In this document: positions 1-24,350 of the stretch, piece after piece
Layout: the number at the start of each line of letters is the position of its first letter
Numbering within the stretch: position 1 is the first letter of the stretch
Assembly: GCA_020723285.1 (NCBI GenBank)
Contig: DYJE01000007.1
Coordinates: 1 to 64,000 of the forward strand
DNA from: Desulforapulum autotrophicum
GTDB lineage: Bacteria > Desulfobacterota > Desulfobacteria > Desulfobacterales > Desulfolunaceae
Direction of reading: 5' to 3'
DNA: 64,000 nucleotides
Notes under the pieces: generated by a model
Told to the model about the DNA's origin: nothing
Database searches by the model: none
The model's input: only the letters and a program-made list of their open reading frames with translations
Translations under genes and position numbers: made by a program

Positions 1-33
1 TGTTATGAAATTCTACTTTTTACGAGTCCATCA
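1..33. repeat. Right end of another MITE-like repeat copy
   Basis: Bases 15-32 match the right terminus of the 150-bp element at 150-299 (a tract of the form ACTTTTTACGAGTCCATC), so the window opens inside or just at the edge of a third copy. It is followed by AACATCCAACATCGAATG, the complement of the GATGTT-type short repeats that surround the other copies. Only the end is visible. Confidence 0.6.
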
Positions 34-6595: not shown

Positions 6596-7054
6596 CTAAA
6601 ACGTTGTCACACGCACAGTGCCATGAACATCAACAGTCATATGGCCCACTCCAAACGTCCCGAGGGATGCGCCTGAAGCGATTTCGGTCCCAAGGCGGAC
6701 CGTGGTGGCCAGATTGCGGATATCCACAATCCGTCCGTCCAGGGTGCATTCGTAACCCATGGCACCGCTTTCGGTGACGATATGGGTGACTGCCTTGGGA
6801 TCAATGCCGATCTGACCTTGATACGTGATATCGGTGAAGCTGAGATAGCCGCCATGGCCCCCGAAATAATAAGCTCCGGTTGCTTGGTCATGGTTTATCT
6901 GAACAAGGCCCAAAAGATCCGAAAATCCTGCCTGGGCCGTGATATTAGCCAGTTCTGCATCTGACATGCGGACAGCATTTGCAAAACCCGATGTAGGAAG
7001 GGCGAACAGACATATGGCACATATGATGGTTGTAAAATAACGAAGATTTCTCAT
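6596..7054 (-). CDS. Secreted FilA-like protein under a four-aptamer riboswitch array
   Basis: A 152-residue exported protein. A signal peptide (about residues 1-25, ending SGFANA) is followed at once by VRMSDAELANITAQAGF, the N-terminal motif shared by seven proteins in this window and similar to the FilA/DUF6160-type family I recall from Acinetobacter. The remainder is predicted beta-rich, with Gly/Thr-rich strands and an end of the form VRVTTF. The function is unknown; a surface fibre, adhesin or coat component is a reasonable guess. The ribosome site AAAGGAG is well placed. It is monocistronic, bounded by a terminator below and, above, by four tandem c-di-GMP-I aptamers, so second-messenger control of this one gene seems to be its main feature. 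Confidence 0.8.
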   Translation of the reverse strand: MRNLRYFTTIICAICLFALPTSGFANAVRMSDAELANITAQAGFSDLLGLVQINHDQATGAYYFGGHGGYLSFTDITYQGQIGIDPKAVTHIVTESGAMGYECTLDGRIVDIRNLATTVRLGTEIASGASLGTFGVGHMTVDVHGTVRVTTF

Positions 7055-7080
7055 GGCGAACTCCTTTCTGTGGTTATTCC

Positions 7081-7156
7081 TACAGGTAACCCGGCTGTCC
7101 TTGATTACAAGGACCCGTGGCTTTCCGTCCCAGAGTTACCTCTGGTTTGGCGTAGA
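7081..7156 (-). ncRNA. GEMM-I (c-di-GMP-I) riboswitch aptamer A, nearest the gene
   Basis: Reads on the minus strand GCCAAACC, a P2 hairpin CCAGAG-GUAA-CUCUGG with a GNRA loop, GGGACGGAAAGCC, ACGGGUCC, GGACAGCCGGGUUACC: the GEMM-I core. The G at the position equivalent to Vc2 G20 is kept, which favours c-di-GMP over cGAMP. P2 differs from its neighbours by a compensated base pair. Only about 25 nt separate it from the start codon, and GGUUA of its 3' strand could pair with UAACC just downstream (7072-7076), a possible switch helix. Confidence 0.9.
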
Positions 7157-7231
7157 GGAGGCGGCCCGGCTGTCCTTTGGCTAAGGACCCGTGGCTTTCC
7201 GTCCCAGGGTTACCCCTGGTTTGGCAGTCTC
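7157..7231 (-). ncRNA. GEMM-I riboswitch aptamer B
   Basis: Same core as aptamer A: GCCAAACC, P2 CCAGGG-GUAA-CCCUGG, GGGACGGAAAGCC, ACGGGUCC and GGACAGCCGGG. The final GGGUUACC is changed to GGGCCGCC, so this copy may be weaker or altered in its terminal stem. The G20-equivalent is kept, but the A18-equivalent is C. Confidence 0.85.
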
Positions 7232-7250
7232 ATTGTCAGTTAAAAATATT

Positions 7251-7327
7251 AACAGGTAACCCGGCTGTCCTTGATTACAAGGACCCGTGGCTTTCCGTCC
7301 CAGGGTCGCCCCTGGTTTGGCGTTGGT
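7251..7327 (-). ncRNA. GEMM-I riboswitch aptamer C
   Basis: Almost identical to aptamer A (same P3 loop UUGUAAUCAA). P2 is CCAGGG-GCGA-CCCUGG, so the loop is a different GNRA tetraloop. The GGGUUACC end and the G20-equivalent are present. Confidence 0.9.
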
Positions 7328-7402
7328 GAGGCAACCCGGCTGTCCTTTGGCTAAGGACCCGTGGCTTTCCGTCCCAGGGTTACCCCTGGTTTGGCATCAT
7401 GC
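7328..7402 (-). ncRNA. GEMM-I riboswitch aptamer D, transcribed first
   Basis: Almost identical to aptamer B in the P3 region (UUAGCCAAA). It has P2 CCAGGG-GUAA-CCCUGG, GGGACGGAAAGCC and GGACAGCCGGGUUGCC, and keeps the G20- and A18-equivalents. It is the first aptamer made as the leader is transcribed. Confidence 0.9.
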
Positions 7403-7421
7403 GCTTCGTCACTCTTTTACC

Positions 7422-7460
7422 CATGTTCCTTTTTTAATGAGATGCTTAAAAAAGAACATG
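7422..7460. repeat. Long AT-rich inverted repeat ahead of the riboswitch array
   Basis: CATGTTCCTTTTTTAA and TTAAAAAAGAACATG pair over 15 bp with one bulged base and a short loop. It sits between the stop of the propeller gene and the array. It could end transcription from the propeller gene or be an operator; a uridine run is inside the stem and not after it. From 7461 to 7597 nothing further is recognised. Confidence 0.5.
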
Positions 7461-7597
7461 GTCATCATGATTTTCAAAGAACAAAGGAGTGTCTGAATGT
7501 CAAAGGCAGTTTTCTACAGACGTACTTCGCTGTTTTTTTTATCGGAAGTACAAAGAAAAAACTGAAGAGGAAAAATGTCGTGGGGTGATTGAAATGA

Positions 7598-9193
7598 TCA
7601 TGGGGCAATTCTTACATCGATCCTGAAAATTTCAGGACCTTGATCCGCACGAATGGCCAGGGTTTTTAAGGATTGTGCGTCACTGAACAGAATCGGGACA
7701 TTTTTGAGAAAACCTTTGAAATATTCCCGGCATTCCACATTGTCCACCACCAGCATCCACTGTTCTCCCCGGCAGGCCTGAAATGCGAAATGTCGGCTGT
7801 CAGGGCTGAAAGCCATCATGCCGATTTTATCGTAACGTTTGGATTCCTTTCCATCCGTCACGATGAACGATCCTGAAGAATTTTGCGCCACATAGGCGTG
7901 GCGCTTTGAGTCCGGGCTGAACAGAAAGGTTGCGATGGTGTCGTAACCGGCCAGTTCCACATCGTTCACCACCATATGCTGCAAAGCGCCGATTTTGACT
8001 TTGTAGGCCATTTTCGATGAATCCGGGCTGTAAGCAGGGAACGACACGGATTCGTATTCTTTTTTCGAGCCATCTTCGGTGACGACAGAATAGGTTTTGC
8101 CGGATAAGGCCACATAACTGAAATGACTGGAATCCGGGCTGTACTGGTAGGGACCGATATCCTTGAGCCATGGACCTTTTTTAGTGTCCGTGATGACACA
8201 GCTTTGTTCGCCTTTTCGGACGGCGTACATGCAGTGTTTTGAATCGGGGCTGTATACGGGCTGTGTGACAGCATCCCATTCTTCCTGAACCGTGTCGTCC
8301 ATGACGGCCACATGTTTGCCTGATTTCGCGGCACGATAGGCCAGATGTTTGGAGTCCGGGCTGAAACCGTAGGAAAGGATGCTGTCATAAGCAGGGCTTT
8401 GAACCCCGTTCCGAACAAGAAACCAGGACTGCTTTTTTCGGGCAGTATAACACAGGATACTGGAATCGGGACTGAAACCCGGCAAACGTATTTCATCGTA
8501 AGGCAGCCCTTCCTTCCCGTTCACAACCATTATCCATGCGTTGTTTGAAAACGCGGGGTATACGACGGTTTTGTCGTCGGGACTGTAAACGGGATAGCCG
8601 GTGCCGTTGATGCCCGTGTAGTTTTTTCCTTTTTCCCCGTTGATGACCACAAAATGATTTTTTGAAAAATCCCTGGCCAGGTAGGCCACGGATGAACCCG
8701 AATGGTTGAAGACGATATTGGCTATACTGTCGTATGCTTCGCTTTGATGGCCGTCGATCACGGCATGGGACCGGTTGTTCAGTCTGGCGATGTAAGCGGT
8801 GCGCTTTCCGCAAGGGCTGAACACCAGTCCCAAGCTGCTGATATTTTCGTACAAAGGGCCACGTTCCATGTTTTTGAAAACACGGATACCGTTAGAATCT
8901 CCGGTCATTTTCACCGCATAGGCCACGGAGTCCATGAGGGGGTAATTGGTTCTCAATGTCTGGGCATAAAACGTGGATGTCGCGGGAATGGAACTGAGCC
9001 GTGTAATTGTTTCAACAAGGGCAGAAGGGTGTGACGTCTTGCCGTACGCGGCTGATCCTGAGAAAAGGACCAGGGTGAGTCCGTAAAAATACAGAAGGTA
9101 TGACAAAGCATACCGCAGTAAGCCGGTCTGCACTCTGCAACCTGATGGAGGAAAAGGGGACCTGTATATCATGCTGAAATATGGAACGTTCAT
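7598..9193 (-). CDS. Exported beta-propeller (WD40/TolB-like repeat) protein
   Basis: A 531-residue protein with a hydrophobic export signal (about residues 25-50, ending SGSAAYG) and then roughly ten repeats of about 45 residues with consensus FSPDSkhxAYxAxxgg..VVxDGxexxxYDxI. This is the pattern of a periplasmic or surface beta-propeller of the TolB/WD40-like type. The start at 9193 was chosen because GGGAGG precedes it and because a terminator stands between the upstream gene and this point; a TTG further up has no support. It is downstream of the FapF-like and porin genes on the same strand and may belong to the same surface system. The exact role is unknown. Confidence 0.75.
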   Translation of the reverse strand: MNVPYFSMIYRSPFPPSGCRVQTGLLRYALSYLLYFYGLTLVLFSGSAAYGKTSHPSALVETITRLSSIPATSTFYAQTLRTNYPLMDSVAYAVKMTGDSNGIRVFKNMERGPLYENISSLGLVFSPCGKRTAYIARLNNRSHAVIDGHQSEAYDSIANIVFNHSGSSVAYLARDFSKNHFVVINGEKGKNYTGINGTGYPVYSPDDKTVVYPAFSNNAWIMVVNGKEGLPYDEIRLPGFSPDSSILCYTARKKQSWFLVRNGVQSPAYDSILSYGFSPDSKHLAYRAAKSGKHVAVMDDTVQEEWDAVTQPVYSPDSKHCMYAVRKGEQSCVITDTKKGPWLKDIGPYQYSPDSSHFSYVALSGKTYSVVTEDGSKKEYESVSFPAYSPDSSKMAYKVKIGALQHMVVNDVELAGYDTIATFLFSPDSKRHAYVAQNSSGSFIVTDGKESKRYDKIGMMAFSPDSRHFAFQACRGEQWMLVVDNVECREYFKGFLKNVPILFSDAQSLKTLAIRADQGPEIFRIDVRIAP

Positions 9194-9217
9194 GGACCTC
9201 CCGGTATTCAGGGTTTT

Positions 9218-9249
9218 AAAAAAAGAAACCATGCAGCGCATGGTTTCCT
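9218..9249 (-). terminator. Rho-independent terminator after the FadL-like gene
   Basis: Arms GAAACCATGC and GCATGGTTTC (10 bp, perfect) with a 3-nt loop, followed on the minus strand by seven U. It separates the FapD/FapF/porin operon from the propeller gene. Confidence 0.85.
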
Positions 9250-9276
9250 TATGAAAAACAGGTTTCAACCGGTGTG

Positions 9277-11034
9277 TCAATCAAATGGGTTTAATTTATT
9301 AAAAACACTTTTGACCCCGTCGATACTGTGCTTGGTCTGCTCGACAAAAATATCCAGGGGCATACTGACGGAGCCAGAAAAAATGTAGATTTTCGTTTCC
9401 TGATAATAATCCAGGCCGGTGAAGGGGTTGTAGACCGGCTTGGTCCAGTCACCGGAGTTCATCAGGTTGCTTGTCCCGTTGGGAACGGAAAAGGAATCGT
9501 TGAAAATATAAGCGAACGCCAGATCGAGGTTGACACCGTTTTTAAGTTTGATTCCAAGGCCTGTTCCGATGTTGTGAAGATCCGGAAGGGAATACAGCCC
9601 GTCGTAAAGGTCGCTCTGAACGGATGTGGGCCGCATTTCATAACCCATTCTAAGGGTCAGCCAGTCCAAGGGCATCAGTTCCAAACCCACACTCCAGTGC
9701 AGGGTGTCTTCAAAATGCCGTTCAAGAACCATTTCATTGGGCTGCTCACCGTAACCCATGATGTTGACAAGACGAAGGAGACTGATGTTCTGGTCGAAAA
9801 CAAACCGGTCTTCCTGAACAACAGACCAGTCGGCCCACTGAAGATCGAAAAGAAGTTTCAGCTGATCAACAGGCTGGAGCCTGATCCCGGCCTGAATGCG
9901 CTGAGGGTAGCTGAAGGAATTGGATGAACAGTAGCCGTACTGGTCTTCACCGTTTGTGGGAAGGTTGAGGGAAGCTGCGGCCACAGGGAGTATCATACCC
10001 TGGCTCATCCAGTTCATCATGGCTGTAAACTGCGGGGAGTGCTGGATGCTGTACCGCCCGATCAGTTCGACATTGATCTCGCTTTGATAGGTGACACCGA
10101 AACCCAGCCACTTTTTGGGCTGCCACAGCACACCCAGATTGTATGAGGGTGAAAAGTCGTCTCTGAGTTTCAGGGAAACCTGGGCCAGCTTGTCATAGGG
10201 CCCCACGCCGCCGCCAAACCAGGGAGAGGGGAGGGTCAATTCGGAAATGATCGGAATTTCAAGGCCCTGTGTGGCGTCACCCAGCATTTTTGTCAGGGCG
10301 ATCATGTCACTGGGTGAACGCATGTCCATGGACGCGAAGGTTGCGGTCTGGCCGAAGCCCACGGAAAAACCCACGGAAAGCGTGTCATCAATTTTATAAC
10401 TGGCGGAAGGGGTCGCGTATAACAAATGCTGCTGAACGACATTTTTTGCCTGGAATCTCAAGGGATCGTCGGGTTCGTCGTGGGTAAATCCGGCAGCGAA
10501 GGGCGCATAGGAACCGATGGCAAATGTCCATCGGGAGTCGGGGTTCCGTGAAGATACACCCATGGTGGGTCCGAAAAGAAAAGGGATGGTGTCATTGTAC
10601 AATGGCAGATACATCAGAGGACCTGTGGTACCTTCCGTTCCGGCCAGGGGGTCACGGTTTTCAGGGTCCACGGCATTGGGCCCTGTGATGTTGGGCCCCC
10701 ATTTGTTCAGGAAGGGTTCCGCGTCCGGGTCAGCTTCCAGGCGTTTGGTCATCAGGATAACAGGAAGTGTCAGGCCCTGTTCAAAAACTTTGCCATTGGG
10801 AAGGGCCGAAAGACCGGCCGGATTGTAGTGCATGGACATGAGACCCGGCGGATCGGCGGTGCAGGTGTTTGCAAGGGATATACCCCGGGTGCTAATGGCC
10901 ATCTGTTCGTGAAAAACGGCAAAACAGGGCTCGGAAAAAAACAAGACGATCAGTGAAACGAACAAGAACCTGGACAGCCATGGAAGCAAGGCTTTTGATT
11001 CTGATAAGACGTTTGTTCTCTGGCTCATATTCAT
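9277..11034 (-). CDS. OmpP1/FadL-like outer-membrane beta-barrel protein
   Basis: About 585 residues, with a signal peptide near residues 20-40 (FVSLIVLFFSEPCFA) and the FadL hallmark YNPAGLS shortly after it. Many amphipathic strands follow and the protein ends in NPFD. FadL-type porins move hydrophobic compounds across the outer membrane through a lateral opening. Here it overlaps or nearly touches the stop of the FapF-like gene, so the two are surely cotranscribed. That context suggests a role in the same surface or secretion system and not ordinary fatty-acid uptake, but this is inference. ATG at 11034 or 11028 are both possible starts; the upstream TTG lacks a ribosome site. Confidence 0.82.
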   Translation of the reverse strand: MNMSQRTNVLSESKALLPWLSRFLFVSLIVLFFSEPCFAVFHEQMAISTRGISLANTCTADPPGLMSMHYNPAGLSALPNGKVFEQGLTLPVILMTKRLEADPDAEPFLNKWGPNITGPNAVDPENRDPLAGTEGTTGPLMYLPLYNDTIPFLFGPTMGVSSRNPDSRWTFAIGSYAPFAAGFTHDEPDDPLRFQAKNVVQQHLLYATPSASYKIDDTLSVGFSVGFGQTATFASMDMRSPSDMIALTKMLGDATQGLEIPIISELTLPSPWFGGGVGPYDKLAQVSLKLRDDFSPSYNLGVLWQPKKWLGFGVTYQSEINVELIGRYSIQHSPQFTAMMNWMSQGMILPVAAASLNLPTNGEDQYGYCSSNSFSYPQRIQAGIRLQPVDQLKLLFDLQWADWSVVQEDRFVFDQNISLLRLVNIMGYGEQPNEMVLERHFEDTLHWSVGLELMPLDWLTLRMGYEMRPTSVQSDLYDGLYSLPDLHNIGTGLGIKLKNGVNLDLAFAYIFNDSFSVPNGTSNLMNSGDWTKPVYNPFTGLDYYQETKIYIFSGSVSMPLDIFVEQTKHSIDGVKSVFNKLNPFD

Positions 11035-11035
11035 C

Positions 11036-12115
11036 TCAAAGTTTGAAGTCAAAGGGAATGCTGAAGGAAAACGTAAAATCAGAAGCCGAATTCGTCAAAC
11101 CGATACCCAGTGATGTGCTGACGGTTTTTTGCGGGGAAATACGCCATCCGGTGCCGATATTTAAAACCGCCGAGGTGGAATCACCGCTTGATTGAGTGCC
11201 CCGGCCCTCATAATAATATTTGTATTTCGTGGCGTAGGACAGGTTCAGGCTGGAGTTGATGGACACGGTGTACGAAAGGGCGTAGGCCATGCCCATGGAC
11301 AGGCCGAGGGTTTTTCCCGGTGCCACTTTTGTCAGAAGCAATCCTTCACGGCGCTGGCTGAGATTGGAGGCGTCAAGAGGGTAATAGATGGAGCCGCTTC
11401 CGAAAACAAACACAGGGTCCAGGGATTTGCTGGCCGAAAGGCCTGCGGAAAGGGAATAGAATCCAGAGCCGGTGGCCAGGGCGTTGTTGATGTCCACTTT
11501 GAACGGACTGGCCCCGGTGGGCAGGACCACGGAGCCGTTGTACATGATCGTGACGCTTCGACCGTCTGATTTCTGGGGCTGCCAGATACCGCCGAACGAA
11601 ATGTCCCCGATGTCCGTGGCGTTTCGTTCGTTGGATGTGGACCTCTGGTCACTTTTATAAACAAAGGGCAGGGTGGCGCTCATGGACAGGTTGTCCAGCA
11701 GGGCGTATTTGAACCCGATGTTGTTGGTGAGATTGTGATTGCTCGAATGGTCCACTTCGGTGGTGTCATTGATGCTTTCAAGAATATCCGTGGCGTTGTG
11801 GGCGTATACGAAACCGTAAGTGATTTCGAGGTTTCCTTCCCGAGACAGGGAGTAGTCCTGACCTGCGGCCGTGAGGATCTCTTTTTCCTGATCGGTCTTT
11901 TCGTCCACAGTGGCCTCAAGCTTGCTCCTGACATCGGTTTCCTCACGAAGGCGTCTGACTTCGTCCTGAAGGGCTTTGAGCTGAACGCCAAAGTCGTTTG
12001 CCGATCCAGCTTTGTCGGCCGTCTTGTCATGCGGTTCGTTTTCAGCGACAGCCGATACGGCAATCATAAAAACCAGGGGTACAACCATCATGAGTTGTTT
12101 TAATCGAGCTGCCAA
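11036..12115 (-). CDS. FapF-like outer-membrane channel (coiled coil plus beta barrel)
   Basis: A 359-residue exported protein with a signal peptide ending AVSAVA, then a short heptad-like coiled coil (about residues 44-75, LKALQDEVRRLREE) and a predicted beta barrel ending FSFSIPFDFKL with a terminal hydrophobic residue. FapF, the trimeric outer-membrane pore that exports Pseudomonas amyloid subunits, has the same arrangement of coiled coil followed by barrel. The TTG start at 12115 is favoured by GGAGG nine bases upstream and by the basic residues it adds before the hydrophobic core. It is preceded by the C39-type gene, as fapD precedes fapF in Pseudomonas. No FapB or FapC amyloid repeats are seen; the FilA-like proteins are the candidate cargo. 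Confidence 0.68.
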   Translation of the reverse strand: MAARLKQLMMVVPLVFMIAVSAVAENEPHDKTADKAGSANDFGVQLKALQDEVRRLREETDVRSKLEATVDEKTDQEKEILTAAGQDYSLSREGNLEITYGFVYAHNATDILESINDTTEVDHSSNHNLTNNIGFKYALLDNLSMSATLPFVYKSDQRSTSNERNATDIGDISFGGIWQPQKSDGRSVTIMYNGSVVLPTGASPFKVDINNALATGSGFYSLSAGLSASKSLDPVFVFGSGSIYYPLDASNLSQRREGLLLTKVAPGKTLGLSMGMAYALSYTVSINSSLNLSYATKYKYYYEGRGTQSSGDSTSAVLNIGTGWRISPQKTVSTSLGIGLTNSASDFTFSFSIPFDFKL

Positions 12116-12192: not shown

Positions 12193-12942
12193 TTAGGGTT
12201 TGTAATACTGTTTTACTTCAGGCACTTCTTTGGACGCCTGATCGATGTCCAGCGGGATTCTGTCCACGGGGTCGATGTACATGGACTTCACGGCCGCGTC
12301 CTCGTCGATGTAAAGCAGGTCTTCCTCCCTGAGTTTCAGGGCGTGGTATTCCTTTTTGTTGCCTGATGATACGACGAACATGACATTTTCATACCAGATG
12401 CTTTCGAACTGGGACAACGTGTAGCTGCTGTGCCCACGCCAGGGATCAGCGATGAAAATATGGCCGTCATGAATTCCTTTGACGACCACGAAGTGTCTGT
12501 ATTCGAATATTTTGATGGGAACGATGCAGGGCCAGAATTCAGAATCCTGCAAGTCCCCTAAATTTCCTTTGTATCCGCTGGCTTCATAGCCGAGGGCGTT
12601 GACGAATTTTTTCATGTCAAGCAGTGAAAAAGCGCGCCGTTGTTTGATTCTCTCAGGGTCTCCGTATTGGAGCATGCCGTGAATGACCTGTTTTTCCGTG
12701 AAATGTTCTCCAAGATAGAAACGCATGAGGGTCGCCAGGGCCGCAGACCCGCAACTGTAATCGTAGGTTTGTTTGACCAGTCGGTCCGTCTGGAATTCGG
12801 ACAGGGGTTTTATCCGGTGATGGGATGTGACATTGGGGTCTGTGGAGTTCGCGATGATCCAGTCGCCTTTGGGAGCGGAATTTTGAGGATAAAAACTGCT
12901 GAATATGGCGATTCCAACTAAAAAACCTATAAGAACATGCAT
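12193..12942 (-). CDS. C39-family peptidase-like protein, FapD-like
   Basis: A 249-residue protein with an N-terminal hydrophobic anchor (residues 2-18) and a papain-like C39 domain. A complete catalytic set is visible: Gln58 and Cys64 in KQTYDYSCGSAAL, His150 in YRHFVVV and Asp166 in IADPWRG. C39 domains cleave after double-glycine leaders in bacteriocin exporters. In the Fap system FapD is a stand-alone periplasmic C39 protein needed for fibre export. This protein has no ABC transporter attached, so the FapD comparison fits better. The start is supported by GGAGC. About 80 nt separate it from the FapF-like gene in one apparent operon. Confidence 0.75.
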   Translation of the reverse strand: MHVLIGFLVGIAIFSSFYPQNSAPKGDWIIANSTDPNVTSHHRIKPLSEFQTDRLVKQTYDYSCGSAALATLMRFYLGEHFTEKQVIHGMLQYGDPERIKQRRAFSLLDMKKFVNALGYEASGYKGNLGDLQDSEFWPCIVPIKIFEYRHFVVVKGIHDGHIFIADPWRGHSSYTLSQFESIWYENVMFVVSSGNKKEYHALKLREEDLLYIDEDAAVKSMYIDPVDRIPLDIDQASKEVPEVKQYYKP

Positions 12943-15322: not shown

Positions 15323-15901
15323 GTGACAAGTAAGACGTTGGCACCCATTACCAAGCAGCTGGCCTTGTTCCATGTGGTCCTTGTCATTGTGCTACTCACG
15401 TTTTCACCCGCATCCTCCATCGAAAAACTGGGAAACGAAGAGCTCAGCCACATATCGGGTCAAAGTGGCGTTACGGTGATTCTCGAAGATTTCAAAGTCA
15501 CCACGGAAATGGGTCGTTTATCCATCGGAGGCGAAGACGGTCTTGGAATACCCGCCGCCGCCGACGGAGCCTATTTCGTTTTTGACAGCAACCGGGTCAC
15601 CGAGCTTGACGTTGAACGGGGTTCCTTTGATTTTGATGTTTTTACGCTGCCGACCAATTATGTGGTGGACGGCGAAGTGATGATCCCGGCCGGAACAACA
15701 GCGTCATGCATCGATTTTGGCGAGGCGTGTTTCAACATCAACATGAGCGATGCCATTGTGACGTTGAAATTTGCGAACAATCCTGACGGAAACGCCAACG
15801 GCATGACGGATTTTTCAAAAACAGTGTGCAACTTTGCCTTGAACGGATCGACGGTCACTGTAAAGAGTGATGATGTAAAAATGTATATCTTTTCACACTG
15901 A
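15323..15901 (+). CDS. Secreted FilA-like protein with MYIFSH C-terminus
   Basis: A 192-residue exported protein. A signal segment around residues 12-32 is followed by IEKLGNEELSHISGQSGVTV, the family motif. Two shared features follow: VMIPAGTT in the middle and an aromatic end MYIFSH, matching YIYAH and YIYGH of two other members. Three cysteines in the second half may form a disulfide. The GTG start is supported by AGAGGAAG. The gene carries its own promoter and operator and begins the plus-strand group of family genes. The function is not known; the shared ends suggest recognition by a common exporter or assembly partner. Confidence 0.78.
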   Translation: MTSKTLAPITKQLALFHVVLVIVLLTFSPASSIEKLGNEELSHISGQSGVTVILEDFKVTTEMGRLSIGGEDGLGIPAAADGAYFVFDSNRVTELDVERGSFDFDVFTLPTNYVVDGEVMIPAGTTASCIDFGEACFNINMSDAIVTLKFANNPDGNANGMTDFSKTVCNFALNGSTVTVKSDDVKMYIFSH

Positions 15902-16097: not shown

Positions 16098-16697
16098 ATG
16101 AAAAAATTAGTTCTTGCCGCAGCCGTCATGATGCTCGTACCCTTCAGTGCTTTCGCTCTGGACACCCTGGATGACGAAGCCCTTTCAAGCCTGACGGCTC
16201 AGGAAGGGGTGACCATCACTTTCGATAGTGTAAAGATTACCCAGCAAGCTTCTGATACGGCATGGTATGACAGTGACGGAGCAACTGGAACTACGCAAGC
16301 ATTGACCGATGTTGATGGCGACGGTGATGTTGATGCAAATGATACTATTGCATTCACTGCCGCCGGTGGCCGTGTTTACGTTGACCAGAGTGGTAGCACT
16401 GAAACGACTCTCACTGGAAGCTTGACTATCGATGTCGCGACAGCTCCTGTTGGTGGAATATCAGTTGGCGGAACAACGATCCCTGCAAATACATCTTTCG
16501 TTCGCATCGGACTTCCCAGTGTCAGTCAGGCAGCATCGGCGAAGTTAATGACGATTTCCATGGATGGCGATATGACGGGCCTTACCAACACGGCGAATTT
16601 TGCTGCGCCTGCTGCTGGTGTAGATGCTCTTGGGACCTTGATTCAAAATGGTGGTACGTCAACTGTAGCTGGTGCGGTTTATATCTACGCCCACTAA
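16098..16697 (+). CDS. Secreted FilA-like protein under a c-di-GMP-type riboswitch
   Basis: A 199-residue exported protein with a clean signal peptide ending PFSAFA and mature start LDTLDDEALSSLTAQEGVT. It contains TIPANTSFVRIGLP and ends VYIYAH, both shared with the protein at 23802. An acidic loop DVDGDGDVDANDT (about residues 73-85) looks like a calcium-binding EF-hand or dockerin-type loop that the paralogs lack. ATG at 16098 was chosen because GAGGAGG sits just before it. The leader carries a GEMM-I-like aptamer and a strong hairpin follows the gene, so it forms its own transcription unit. The likely site is the cell surface. Confidence 0.82.
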   Translation: MKKLVLAAAVMMLVPFSAFALDTLDDEALSSLTAQEGVTITFDSVKITQQASDTAWYDSDGATGTTQALTDVDGDGDVDANDTIAFTAAGGRVYVDQSGSTETTLTGSLTIDVATAPVGGISVGGTTIPANTSFVRIGLPSVSQAASAKLMTISMDGDMTGLTNTANFAAPAAGVDALGTLIQNGGTSTVAGAVYIYAH

Positions 16698-16905: not shown

Positions 16906-18246
16906 ATGAAAATTCGTGCAGCAGCGTTGGTTCTTTTAATATCAACCGTTTTCATCCCGCTTTCCTCTTTTGCCGTGGAGAGTCTCTCTGAAGACGAAAT
17001 GGGTCAAATTACCGCGCAGGACGGAGCCACCTTTGTCATCGAAGACTTCGATTTCTACATCACAAGCCCCGGAGCCACGTACCTGGACACCCACACCGAG
17101 GTGACAGGCAATGAAAACGGACGGGGCTCCATGACATTCCAGAACCTTGAAATCCATGACGGCATATCCGGAGCCGCCGTGTTTTCAACCAACATGGACT
17201 GGGATATTTTCAGCCAGACGCGCGGGGACGTGGATTACAATTTCGCCAAATTCAGCTTTTACAACACCACGACCGTGATGGATGTGGATGCGGGGAATAT
17301 CCGGCTCACACCCTTGAAGCTGACCTATGGTGCCAATCATGTGATATCCTCTTACCAGAATTACACCATCGATATCGGAGCCCTGGCCATCAGCGACATT
17401 TCCATCAACCAGATGACGGCTTACCTTGGTGCACTGTCAAACAACACCGGTGTTGCGGGTGAAATCGGGCTCAATATGAAAATCAGCAGCATGATTTTTG
17501 ATATCATGCGGCCCCAGGCCAGTGCCCTGACGGAACCTTTTGAGTTCTCCAACATGATGGTTTGCGGATCTTTCACAGGATCGGAGCCGGCATACGACAG
17601 CACCAAACCCCTTTCAGAAACATCGGTTCCCGGTCTCTGGTCTGAAGAACGGGCCGAGGAATACGCCGGCGGAGACGCCCAATACAAAGCGCAGCTGCTT
17701 GCGGCAAACCGCTGGAAACCGGACCCCGACTCGTGGGCTGCCCACGGTTTGTTCAGAATCGGTGATGTTGAAAACGGGAACCCCATGCGGATCAACATGA
17801 CGGTGGACAACAACTACTACATTCCCTTTCCTTACGATATCGTTTCCGGTGAACCGACCCAGGACAGCCGGGTCGAATGGTACGAGGCCGAATCAGGCGA
17901 GCTGTTCACGGCTGATCGGGGCTGGCGTGACGGCAAAGACAACTACCTCACCGACGGGACGCATTACAGGCCCATACGGAATCCAAGATTCGGAAAAGCG
18001 TACATGACAATGGACGCCCCGATTTCAGGGTCTTTGCGTCTCGGAAACGAGGGCGGCGATATCCTGATCGTCGACGGGATCAATCTTCAGATGCATGTGG
18101 AAGTTCCGGGTTACGGTTACGGAAACACCCCCAACTCCATCCCAAGACCGTATCCTGATCCCGATCTGCCTGCCCCAAGGTATGATACATACAACAATAT
18201 CAACGGGCTGAATTACAACAGTGCAGCGTGGTGGAACGGTCAATGA
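16906..18246 (+). CDS. Large secreted FilA-like protein
   Basis: A 446-residue exported protein. The signal peptide ends LSSFA and the mature N-terminus is VESLSEDEMGQITAQDGATF, a good match to the family motif. The long body is beta-rich and aromatic, with repeated 'F(Y)N...DI' type strands and a Pro/Tyr-rich tail (about 405-446) ending in WWNGQ. It has no IPANTSFVR core and so represents a different subfamily. A weak copy of the TetR-type half site (TAAACAAT) lies at 16838-16845. It is followed after 24 nt by the related gene at 18271, presumably cotranscribed. Confidence 0.75.
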   Translation: MKIRAAALVLLISTVFIPLSSFAVESLSEDEMGQITAQDGATFVIEDFDFYITSPGATYLDTHTEVTGNENGRGSMTFQNLEIHDGISGAAVFSTNMDWDIFSQTRGDVDYNFAKFSFYNTTTVMDVDAGNIRLTPLKLTYGANHVISSYQNYTIDIGALAISDISINQMTAYLGALSNNTGVAGEIGLNMKISSMIFDIMRPQASALTEPFEFSNMMVCGSFTGSEPAYDSTKPLSETSVPGLWSEERAEEYAGGDAQYKAQLLAANRWKPDPDSWAAHGLFRIGDVENGNPMRINMTVDNNYYIPFPYDIVSGEPTQDSRVEWYEAESGELFTADRGWRDGKDNYLTDGTHYRPIRNPRFGKAYMTMDAPISGSLRLGNEGGDILIVDGINLQMHVEVPGYGYGNTPNSIPRPYPDPDLPAPRYDTYNNINGLNYNSAAWWNGQ

Positions 18247-23801: not shown

Positions 23802-24350
23802 ATGAAAAAAACAGCATTGACGTTGATTCTCGCATGCGCGGCCCTATGCATGCCTTTGAGTGCTTCAGCCATAGAGACTTTGAACGATGACGCCTTGTCC
23901 GCGGTTACGGCGAAATCGGGGGTCACCATTTTTCTTGAAGGTAAGCTCACCATGACCCAGGAGTTTACAAACATCGGTATCGGTGACGATGATGGAATTG
24001 GTGGTGGCACCAGCGGCGGCTGGCTGATCATGGACAGCGGCGGGGAAACGTCTTTCATGGAGGTTTCCATGAAGGATGCGAAAATTGAAATCGATGTGGC
24101 CACAACCGGCGTGGACGGATACAAACCCAGTCTCCACAGTGAAATTTTCATTCCCGCCAATACCTCGTTTGTCCGGTTCGGGTTGCCGGATAACGTGGCT
24201 GTCAACACCTTTCTGGCCAATGGCTACCATCTTTATCTGAACAATGAATATTCCACCGTGGGTGCAAGCTACATGGGTGAGCTGCGAATCAGTGACATGC
24301 AGTTCCAGATGAATGGAACGCCCACAACGCTTTATATCTACGGGCATTGA
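23802..24350 (+). CDS. Secreted FilA-like protein with YIYGH C-terminus
   Basis: A 182-residue exported protein. A signal peptide ending LSASA is followed by IETLNDDALSAVTAKSGVT. It shares IPANTSFVRFGLP and the end LYIYGH with the riboswitch-controlled protein at 16098, and IDVATT in the middle, so the two are close relatives. The ATG start follows AGGG and gives a clean signal peptide. Its own promoter carries the perfect TetR-type palindrome and a terminator follows, so it is a single-gene unit controlled by the regulator and not by c-di-GMP aptamers. Confidence 0.82.
   Translation: MKKTALTLILACAALCMPLSASAIETLNDDALSAVTAKSGVTIFLEGKLTMTQEFTNIGIGDDDGIGGGTSGGWLIMDSGGETSFMEVSMKDAKIEIDVATTGVDGYKPSLHSEIFIPANTSFVRFGLPDNVAVNTFLANGYHLYLNNEYSTVGASYMGELRISDMQFQMNGTPTTLYIYGH

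What the first reader, a model, noticed from the sequence alone, without database searches (positions are those of the whole stretch)
7081..7402. Four tandem c-di-GMP-I (GEMM-I) riboswitch aptamers before one secreted-protein gene
Four complete GEMM-I cores lie head to tail on the minus strand and end about 25 nt before a FilA-like gene. Each has GCCAAACC, a GNRA-capped P2, GGACGGAAAGCC and the GGACAGCCGGG strand. P2 of aptamer A has a compensated base change, and all four keep the G20-equivalent that favours c-di-GMP. Single and double GEMM aptamers are known; four in a row is unusual and would give a steep or multi-input response.
Basis: partly seen in the sequence, partly recalled or inferred. 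Interest (0 to 1): 0.9.

Follow-up and report, generated by a model that had tools for sequence, protein, structure and literature searches.

The report
Four-receptor c-di-GMP riboswitch array
Upstream of a gene for a probable secreted protein, one bacterial RNA leader packs four copies of a sensor for the signal molecule c-di-GMP with little room for more than one on/off control site; relatives carry two to six copies before the same kind of gene, a compact stacking that may show whether such sensors work together.

Summary
RF01051 finds four aptamers on the minus strand (61.2-69.7 bits, cut-off 35). All four keep G/A/C at the ligand contacts and P2 covaries across relatives. A FilA-like gene in a fil-type cluster starts 30 nt after the last aptamer.

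It is not a one-off. The same genome has five aptamers at a paralogous fil locus; a second genus has a 4- and a 5-array with the same linker pattern; others have 2-6. A strict-pattern scan of 84,980 species genomes for three compact aptamers of this subtype gave six stretches. A published survey reports 347 doublets and 12 triplets.

Linkers are 8, 29 and 8 nt with no terminator-like site, leaving little room for a platform per aptamer. Folding against a shuffled-linker control favours SD occlusion when the aptamers are folded (11 of 14 arrays), i.e. a translational OFF switch, but the window contrast is small and other folds disagree. "Multi-input" is not supported here; "steep" would need coupling (independent sites: Hill 1.3 at n=4).

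The parts
7472..7482 (-). boxA-like element GTTCTTTGAAA
   Evidence: TTCTTTGA lies within 260 nt upstream of 15 of 17 arrays examined, a one-letter variant (ATCTTTGA) in one (C75), none in G045
7421..7461 (-). leader hairpin CCATGTTC..GAACATGG
   Evidence: judged by eye in the leaders, with differing stems; not seen in G374, weak in G016
7403..7422 (-). conserved leader GGGTAAAAGAGTGACGAAGC
   Evidence: composite boxA-N-GGGTAAAAGRG pattern: 6 matches in 389 genomes, 6 of 6 at fil aptamer arrays, reversed-pattern control 0
7327..7405 (-). c-di-GMP-I aptamer 1
   Evidence: RF01051 63.9 bits
7322..7329 (-). short linker 1 (TCACCAAC)
7252..7331 (-). c-di-GMP-I aptamer 2
   Evidence: RF01051 68.7 bits
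7226..7254 (-). linker 2, 29 nt, contains a GTTAA/TTAAC hairpin
   Evidence: predicted fold
7157..7235 (-). c-di-GMP-I aptamer 3 (97% identical to aptamer 1)
   Evidence: RF01051 61.2 bits; identity
7152..7160 (-). last short linker with anti-SD CUCCU (7156-7160; its first C is the C93-equivalent of aptamer 3)
7082..7161 (-). c-di-GMP-I aptamer 4 (94% identical to aptamer 2)
   Evidence: RF01051 69.7 bits; RF03168 68.4 bits
7068..7085 (-). tail hairpin CUGU..ACAG directly after aptamer 4
   Evidence: outer stem of at least 3 bp in 15 of 15 arrays (segments delimited by eye)
7061..7066 (-). Shine-Dalgarno AAGGAG
   Evidence: 6 nt before ATG
6596..7054 (-). FilA-like gene, 152 aa, probable secreted protein (DUF6160 24.1 bits, below cut-off 27)
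7598..9280 (-). beta-propeller protein (PD40; partial match to NCBIfam TmcD 115.3 bits, cut-off 440), fil cluster
9277..11052 (-). FadL-family FilD-like outer membrane protein
   Evidence: NF050080 287.4 bits, cut-off 970
12193..12942 (-). C39 peptidase, FilB-like (also FapD-like)
   Evidence: NF050078 195.3 bits, cut-off 475

Best explanation
A c-di-GMP-I riboswitch that has multiplied its receptor domain to four while keeping a single, translational expression platform. Shown: four aptamers with c-di-GMP-type contact letters; linkers with little room for separate platforms; no intrinsic-terminator-like site; one Shine-Dalgarno sequence right after a tail hairpin; anti-SD CUCCU in the last linker; boxA-hairpin-GGGTAAAAG leader shared with relatives. 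Inferred: when the last two aptamers are folded and hold c-di-GMP, the linker between them pairs with the SD across aptamer 4 and blocks translation of the FilA-like protein (OFF switch). Upstream aptamers were added by duplication of an aptamer pair and tune threshold and stringency, or couple through shared linkers. The boxA-like leader probably keeps RNA polymerase processive through the long untranslated leader, as proposed for CRISPR arrays.
For: Aptamers. Contact letters G/A/C in 4 of 4 window aptamers; G and C at the first and third contact in 52 of 55 aptamers of 14 arrays. No terminator-like site in 6950-7650, shuffle mean 1.2. Last short linker begins UCCU in 9 of 13 arrays against 2 of 11 non-terminal short linkers (homologous arrays, not independent). 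Folding up to the ATG with both last cores held and contact letters open: the SD pairs with the last linker with P=0.95 in the window (0.28 unconstrained) and P>=0.5 in 7 of 14 arrays. SD openness falls in 11 of 14 arrays, mean change -0.19 against -0.015 with shuffled linkers. A five-aptamer array at a paralogous locus, and a 4- and a 5-array before probable orthologues in a second genus with the same linker pattern; two of the four 5-array linkers are letter-identical. Leader: 6 of 6 pattern matches in 389 genomes at arrays. 20 GGDEF matches in the genome, two of them parts of one frame and one a fragment. Vc2, described as the best known GEMM-I RNA, is a translational OFF switch (PMC9262584 passages).
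Against: In the window the SD is predicted mostly closed in either state (unpaired 0.19 free, 0.04 folded), and with the coding start included and no constraint it already pairs with the linker at 0.70, so the computed contrast is small. In that longer construct the pairing reaches P>=0.5 in only 3 of 14 arrays (window, G216, G004). In G016, G026 and L062 the change goes the other way. L059 and L063 have no CUCCU in the last linker and close the SD by other pairs; L063 changes by only -0.01. The window linker-SD duplex is not exceptional for its composition (56 of 300 shuffles as good). The tail hairpin is weak by energy: -0.5 kcal/mol in C75 and G001_5, no fold in L059 and L063, another fold in L062. 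In C79 and C75 a local P1 (UCUAC/GUAGG, UCCUA/UAGGA) could trap CUCCU and free the SD. Canonical P1 looks weak or absent here, and P1 loss abolishes binding in Vc2 though not in Cd1. No binding or expression data exist. The SD is constrained anyway, so complementarity to CUCCU is not independent covariation. boxA rests on similarity: one position off the gamma-proteobacterial consensus GYTCTTTAANA, and no rRNA leader of these genomes could be read.
Confidence: 0.45

Rival explanations
1. ON switch: c-di-GMP stabilises a local P1 of the last aptamer that uses the CUCCU linker (UCUAC/GUAGG in the window), which frees the SD.
For: The register is shared by the window and the paralogous array with pair changes (sequence). 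Putative pilus or fibre genes are often induced by c-di-GMP (general knowledge).
Against: By eye, the local P1 shrinks to 2-3 pairs in G177, G216, G132 and G001_4 (sequences); folding with the aptamer cores held closes the SD in 11 of 14 arrays.
Confidence: 0.3
2. Pseudo-cooperative series of complete riboswitches, each with its own platform, as in the Bacillus thuringiensis triplet.
For: Tandem c-di-GMP-I riboswitches are described this way (PMC9481103, PMC4759541 and PMC12452182 passages). The third linker of the C75 array resembles its own SD tail (shuffle p 0.001; 0.0115 in G001_5).
Against: Linkers of 8, 29 and 8 nt and no terminator-like site in 6950-7650. Window linker 2 does not resemble the tail (p 0.22); of 16 linkers tested only the two named have p below 0.05.
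Confidence: 0.07
3. Selectively neutral copy-number drift: unequal recombination between near-identical aptamers makes arrays grow and shrink without function for the number.
For: Within-array identity reaches 97-99% (window 1-3, C75 1-5, G001_5 1-3; neighbours 2-3 in G001_4), against 87-90% for matching positions of the window array and G001: concerted evolution.
Against: Copy numbers 4 and 5 and the order of short and long linkers are the same in two genera, two 5-array linkers letter-identical, although other linkers and P3 loops diverged; P2 is intact in 54 of 54 usable aptamers.
Confidence: 0.15
4. Upstream aptamers act as a c-di-GMP sink or as RNA-stabilising structure rather than as switches.
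For: The UCCU start is a feature of the last short linker (9 of 13) more than of others (2 of 11).
Against: First and third contact letters are kept in 52 of 55 aptamers, upstream copies included; a cis sink would need very high transcript levels.
Confidence: 0.08

Closest known systems
c-di-GMP-I (GEMM-I) riboswitch, RF01051; Vc2 as translational OFF switch
   Same: Aptamer sequence, structure and ligand-contact letters; SD-level control proposed
   Different: Four aptamers before one SD; C-G instead of G-C at the pair next to the G20-equivalent; P1 short or replaced, with a 3'-side hairpin after the second and fourth copies
Triple-tandem c-di-GMP-I riboswitch Bc3-5 (Bacillus thuringiensis)
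   Same: Several c-di-GMP-I aptamers before one operon of surface proteins
   Different: There each unit has its own terminator and is modelled as an ON switch (passages of PMC4759541); here no terminator-like site and short linkers
Glycine riboswitch (two aptamers, one platform; 'quadruplets' = two such units)
   Same: Multiple like aptamers with one platform; array readable as two aptamer pairs
   Different: Different RNA class; cooperativity and inter-aptamer contacts not shown here
boxA-preceded CRISPR arrays and rRNA leaders
   Same: boxA-like element ahead of a long structured untranslated RNA
   Different: Here it precedes a riboswitch array; Nus-factor binding not tested

Membership tests
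c-di-GMP-I riboswitch (RF01051) | Covariance-model score above gathering cut-off | tested here: met
   4 of 4, 61.2-69.7 bits, cut-off 35
c-di-GMP-I riboswitch (RF01051) | GNRA-capped P2 with covariation | tested here: met
   54 of 54 usable aptamers of 55
c-di-GMP-I riboswitch (RF01051) | G at the 20-, A at the 47-, C at the 92-equivalent (Vc2 numbering recalled; G20 named as selectivity position) | tested here: met
   4 of 4 in the window
c-di-GMP-I riboswitch (RF01051) | Canonical P1 next to the ligand site | tested here: inconclusive
   weak or absent by eye in the window copies; Vc2 needs it, Cd1 does not (passages)
c-di-GMP-I riboswitch (RF01051) | Binds c-di-GMP | not testable with these tools
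   no binding data
c-di-GMP-I-UAU / c-di-GMP-I-GGC variants (RF03168, RF03167) | Variant contact letters (U20..U92; G47), as I read them from the model consensus and names | tested here: not met
   these models give the best cmscan match for two window aptamers, but the contact letters are G/A/C
Pseudo-cooperative tandem riboswitch | Each aptamer has its own expression platform | tested here: not met
   linkers 8, 29, 8 nt; 0 terminator-like sites
Cooperative multi-aptamer riboswitch (glycine type) | Several like aptamers, one platform | tested here: met
   one SD and one gene after four aptamers
Cooperative multi-aptamer riboswitch (glycine type) | Cooperative ligand binding | not testable with these tools
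   needs titration
boxA / Nus antitermination leader | boxA sequence ahead of an untranslated RNA | tested here: inconclusive
   TTCTTTGA before 15 of 17 arrays; one position off the gamma consensus; no rRNA leader available for comparison

The most novel reading that the evidence does not exclude
The fil leaders of these Desulfobacterota are a distinct RNA device: a Nus-type antitermination leader feeding a compact array of three to six c-di-GMP receptors whose neighbours share linker strands, so that bound receptors are physically coupled and read out once, at a single SD. Receptor number is a selected set-point, not a series of independent switches.
Probability: 0.3. Interest if true: 0.8.

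Novelty: new variant of a known kind. Interest (0 to 1): 0.62.

Why it matters
In the survey passages that I saw, counts of tandem c-di-GMP-I riboswitches stop at three and are explained by independent platforms in series. Compact arrays of four to six before one SD ask whether GEMM-I aptamers can cooperate at all, and give natural length variants (2, 3, 4, 5, 6) before the same kind of gene with which to measure it. A boxA-like leader before a riboswitch array, if confirmed, would link Nus-factor antitermination to riboswitch control.

Tried and rejected
Rejected: chance or DNA-level repeat (RF01051 scores, compensated P2 changes). Rejected: assembly artefact (an independent genome, G001, has a 4- and a 5-array with the same linker pattern). 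Rejected: cGAMP specificity in the window (G at the 20-equivalent in all four). Rejected by eye only: -35 promoter reading of TTCTTTGACA (no -10 seen 17 nt downstream; in G132 a TTGACA/TATATT pair lies upstream of it). Rejected as general: long linkers being decayed copies of the SD tail (below p 0.05 in 2 of 16 linkers tested, C75 and G001_5).

The match lists were cut off, so array counts are lower bounds. Positions were listed for 26 genomes that I chose among those with 7 or more matches, not all of them (the list was also cut off at its weak end). The genome-wide scan pattern fits this aptamer subtype only; canonical GEMM-I arrays such as that of G045 do not match it, and records near the window's own genome may be left out of it. 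G052 was dropped from the tail and linker counts because no gene follows its second aptamer; one of the five G016 linkers was not tested because the script merged two aptamers there.

Full report
What is there. On the minus strand of the window, 7082-7405, four c-di-GMP-I aptamers lie head to tail (RF01051 63.9, 68.7, 61.2, 69.7 bits in 5'-3' order, cut-off 35). Linkers after the C93-equivalent are 8, 29 and 8 nt. Aptamers 1 and 3 are 97% and 2 and 4 are 94% identical, so the array reads as a duplicated pair: (1-short-2)-long linker-(3-short-4)-hairpin-SD-gene. All four have G, A and C at the three contact positions. The Rfam sub-models RF03167 and RF03168 score best in cmscan for two of them, but the contact letters that I read as defining those variants are absent.

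Not a one-off. The same genome has five aptamers in a row at C75:11273-11672, before a FilA-like gene behind a similar gene order (C39 peptidase, outer membrane protein, FadL-type protein, beta-propeller protein; for C75 judged from the translations, not scanned, except the FilA-like protein). In a second genus of the family, G001 has a 4-array and a 5-array, before FilA-like proteins that resemble those of the window and of C75. In the 5-arrays two of four linkers are letter-identical between the genera (TGTAACAGTTAACAGAAGACGTACAAG and TCCTAT); the other two, and the three of the 4-arrays, are similar in kind but differ. Other arrays: six aptamers in G016; four in G026 (three over cut-off as best clan match, one by pattern), G132, G177, G216 and L062; three in G374 and in L059 and L063 (two of three over cut-off); two in G004; and a canonical-type four in G045 with 5-7 nt between the matches. 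In the order, 281 of 389 sampled genomes have some RF01051 match and at least 9 of 389 have a compact array of three or more (G000, G001, G016, G026, G045, G132, G177, G216, G374); the lists were truncated. Among the 26 genomes, the only other triple I saw has about 150 nt between aptamers (G171).

What is published. The tandem-riboswitch survey reports 347 doublets and 12 triplets of c-di-GMP-I (PMC9481103, passages); the quadruplet passage that I saw there concerns glycine. A 2025 survey describes c-di-GMP tandems as complete units in series (PMC12452182, passages). The Bacillus thuringiensis triplet has a terminator per unit (PMC4759541, passages). The listings of searches showed no paper on four or more c-di-GMP-I aptamers; they cover only the held open-access library and I read passages, not whole papers.

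Downstream gene. In 14 of 14 arrays with a readable SD tail the next ORF looks, by eye, like a signal peptide followed by a FilA-like segment. Ten of the 14 were scanned with Pfam (window; nine): DUF6160 matches 10 of 10 at E 0.0022 or better, over its cut-off in 6 of 10 (window 24.1 bits, cut-off 27, not over). The other 4 of 14 were not scanned. Neighbours match NCBIfam FilD and FilB well but below their strict cut-offs. 'Fil' is named a putative pilus system there; the C39 peptidase also resembles the amyloid-maturation peptidase FapD.

Platform. After the last aptamer comes a hairpin whose outer stem is at least 3 bp in 15 of 15 arrays (segments delimited by eye, so the count leans towards the stem; shuffle p below 0.05 in 14 of 15, 0.075 in G016), with changed pairs (U-A to A-U in G374; U-A to C-G in G004 and G002). 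By energy it is weak in some: -0.5 kcal/mol in C75 and G001_5, no fold in L059 and L063, a different one in L062. The SD follows directly. The short linker before the last aptamer starts UCC in 12 of 13 and UCCU in 9 of 13 arrays that have one; non-terminal short linkers (12 nt or less) start UCCU in 2 of 11 (L059 and L063 end with a long linker instead). CUCCU is complementary to AGGAG. The last linker is the best duplex partner of the SD in 10 of 13 arrays with more than one linker; exceptions L062, L059, L063. In L062 the first linker pairs with the SD over 11 bp.

Direction. With both last cores held folded and contact letters open, in constructs ending at the ATG, the SD pairs with the last linker with P>=0.5 in 7 of 14 arrays, window 0.95. 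SD openness falls in 11 of 14 (mean -0.19; shuffled linkers -0.015), and in those 11 at most 2 of 25 shuffles are as closed. Against this: three arrays go the other way; two of the 11 (L059, L063) do not use the linker and one of these changes by only -0.01; in the window the SD is mostly closed in either state (0.19 to 0.04); and unconstrained folds that include the coding start show the pairing at P>=0.5 in only 3 of 14, the window already at 0.70. I therefore favour a translational OFF switch at modest confidence, lowered from 0.5 to 0.45 on rechecking because the window contrast is small. Vc2 is described as a translational OFF switch in PMC9262584 (passages).

What the copy number does. 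For n independent sites that must all be filled, the midpoint moves to 2.4, 5.3 and 6.7 Kd for n=2, 4, 5, while the effective Hill value is only 1.19, 1.30 and 1.33. So extra copies mainly shift threshold and stringency unless neighbours couple. Short linkers are at once the 3' flank of one aptamer and the 5' flank of the next, which makes coupling possible but does not show it.

Leader. A boxA-like TTCTTTGA lies within 260 nt upstream of 15 of 17 arrays, with a variant in C75 and none in G045. GTTCTTTGAMA occurs 16 times in the own genome (reversed control 4), and of these 16 sites only the window array site is followed by GTAAAAG within the stretch examined. The composite pattern occurs 6 times in 389 genomes, 6 of 6 at these arrays, control 0. 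boxA before CRISPR arrays is reported as promoting expression of long arrays, with GTTCTTTAAAA in one Legionella strain (PMC7862264, passages); the gamma-proteobacterial consensus is GYTCTTTAANA (PMC5725501, passages). Nus binding here is an inference.

Ligand supply. The genome has 20 GGDEF matches, two of them parts of one frame and one a fragment with a stop.

Relatives with other letters. G026 aptamer 2 has A at the 20-equivalent, and G002's third aptamer too (read by eye), a letter linked to cGAMP preference (PMC9481103 passages). Mixed arrays may therefore exist elsewhere, but not in the window.

Verdict. Real, rare, conserved, a new variant of a known kind; direction of the switch open.

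Noticed in passing
window 7403-7482 (minus strand): boxA-like element, hairpin and GGGTAAAAGAG leader; the composite pattern was found only at these arrays in 389 genomes.
   Followed up: partly
L053 (G026) and L064 (G002): Single aptamers with A at the 20-equivalent inside otherwise G-type arrays, a possible two-ligand (c-di-GMP and cGAMP) array.
   Followed up: no
L072 7438-7794 minus (G045): Four canonical GEMM-I aptamers with 5-7 nt between matches before a hydrolase-like gene; by eye, linkers 1 and 2 hold a 9-nt complement flanking aptamer 2 that competes with a hairpin in linker 1.
   Followed up: partly
L062, minus strand, first linker (oriented 1306-1322) and SD tail: An 11-bp complement between the first linker and the SD region, -20.4 kcal/mol, 0 of 300 shuffles as good.
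   Followed up: no
L015 13036-13115 and 13989-14084 (G000 C75): Two more FilA-like genes each preceded by a single GEMM-I aptamer in the same genome; ten DUF6160 matches at E up to 1, five of them over cut-off.
   Followed up: no
window 15362-15499, 16098-16328, 16924-17163 and 23820-24101 (plus strand): Further DUF6160-like genes near the fil cluster without an RF01051 match.
   Followed up: no
G171:C1:2470529-2471057: Three GEMM-I aptamers with very similar scores about 150 nt apart, perhaps a series of complete riboswitches.
   Followed up: no
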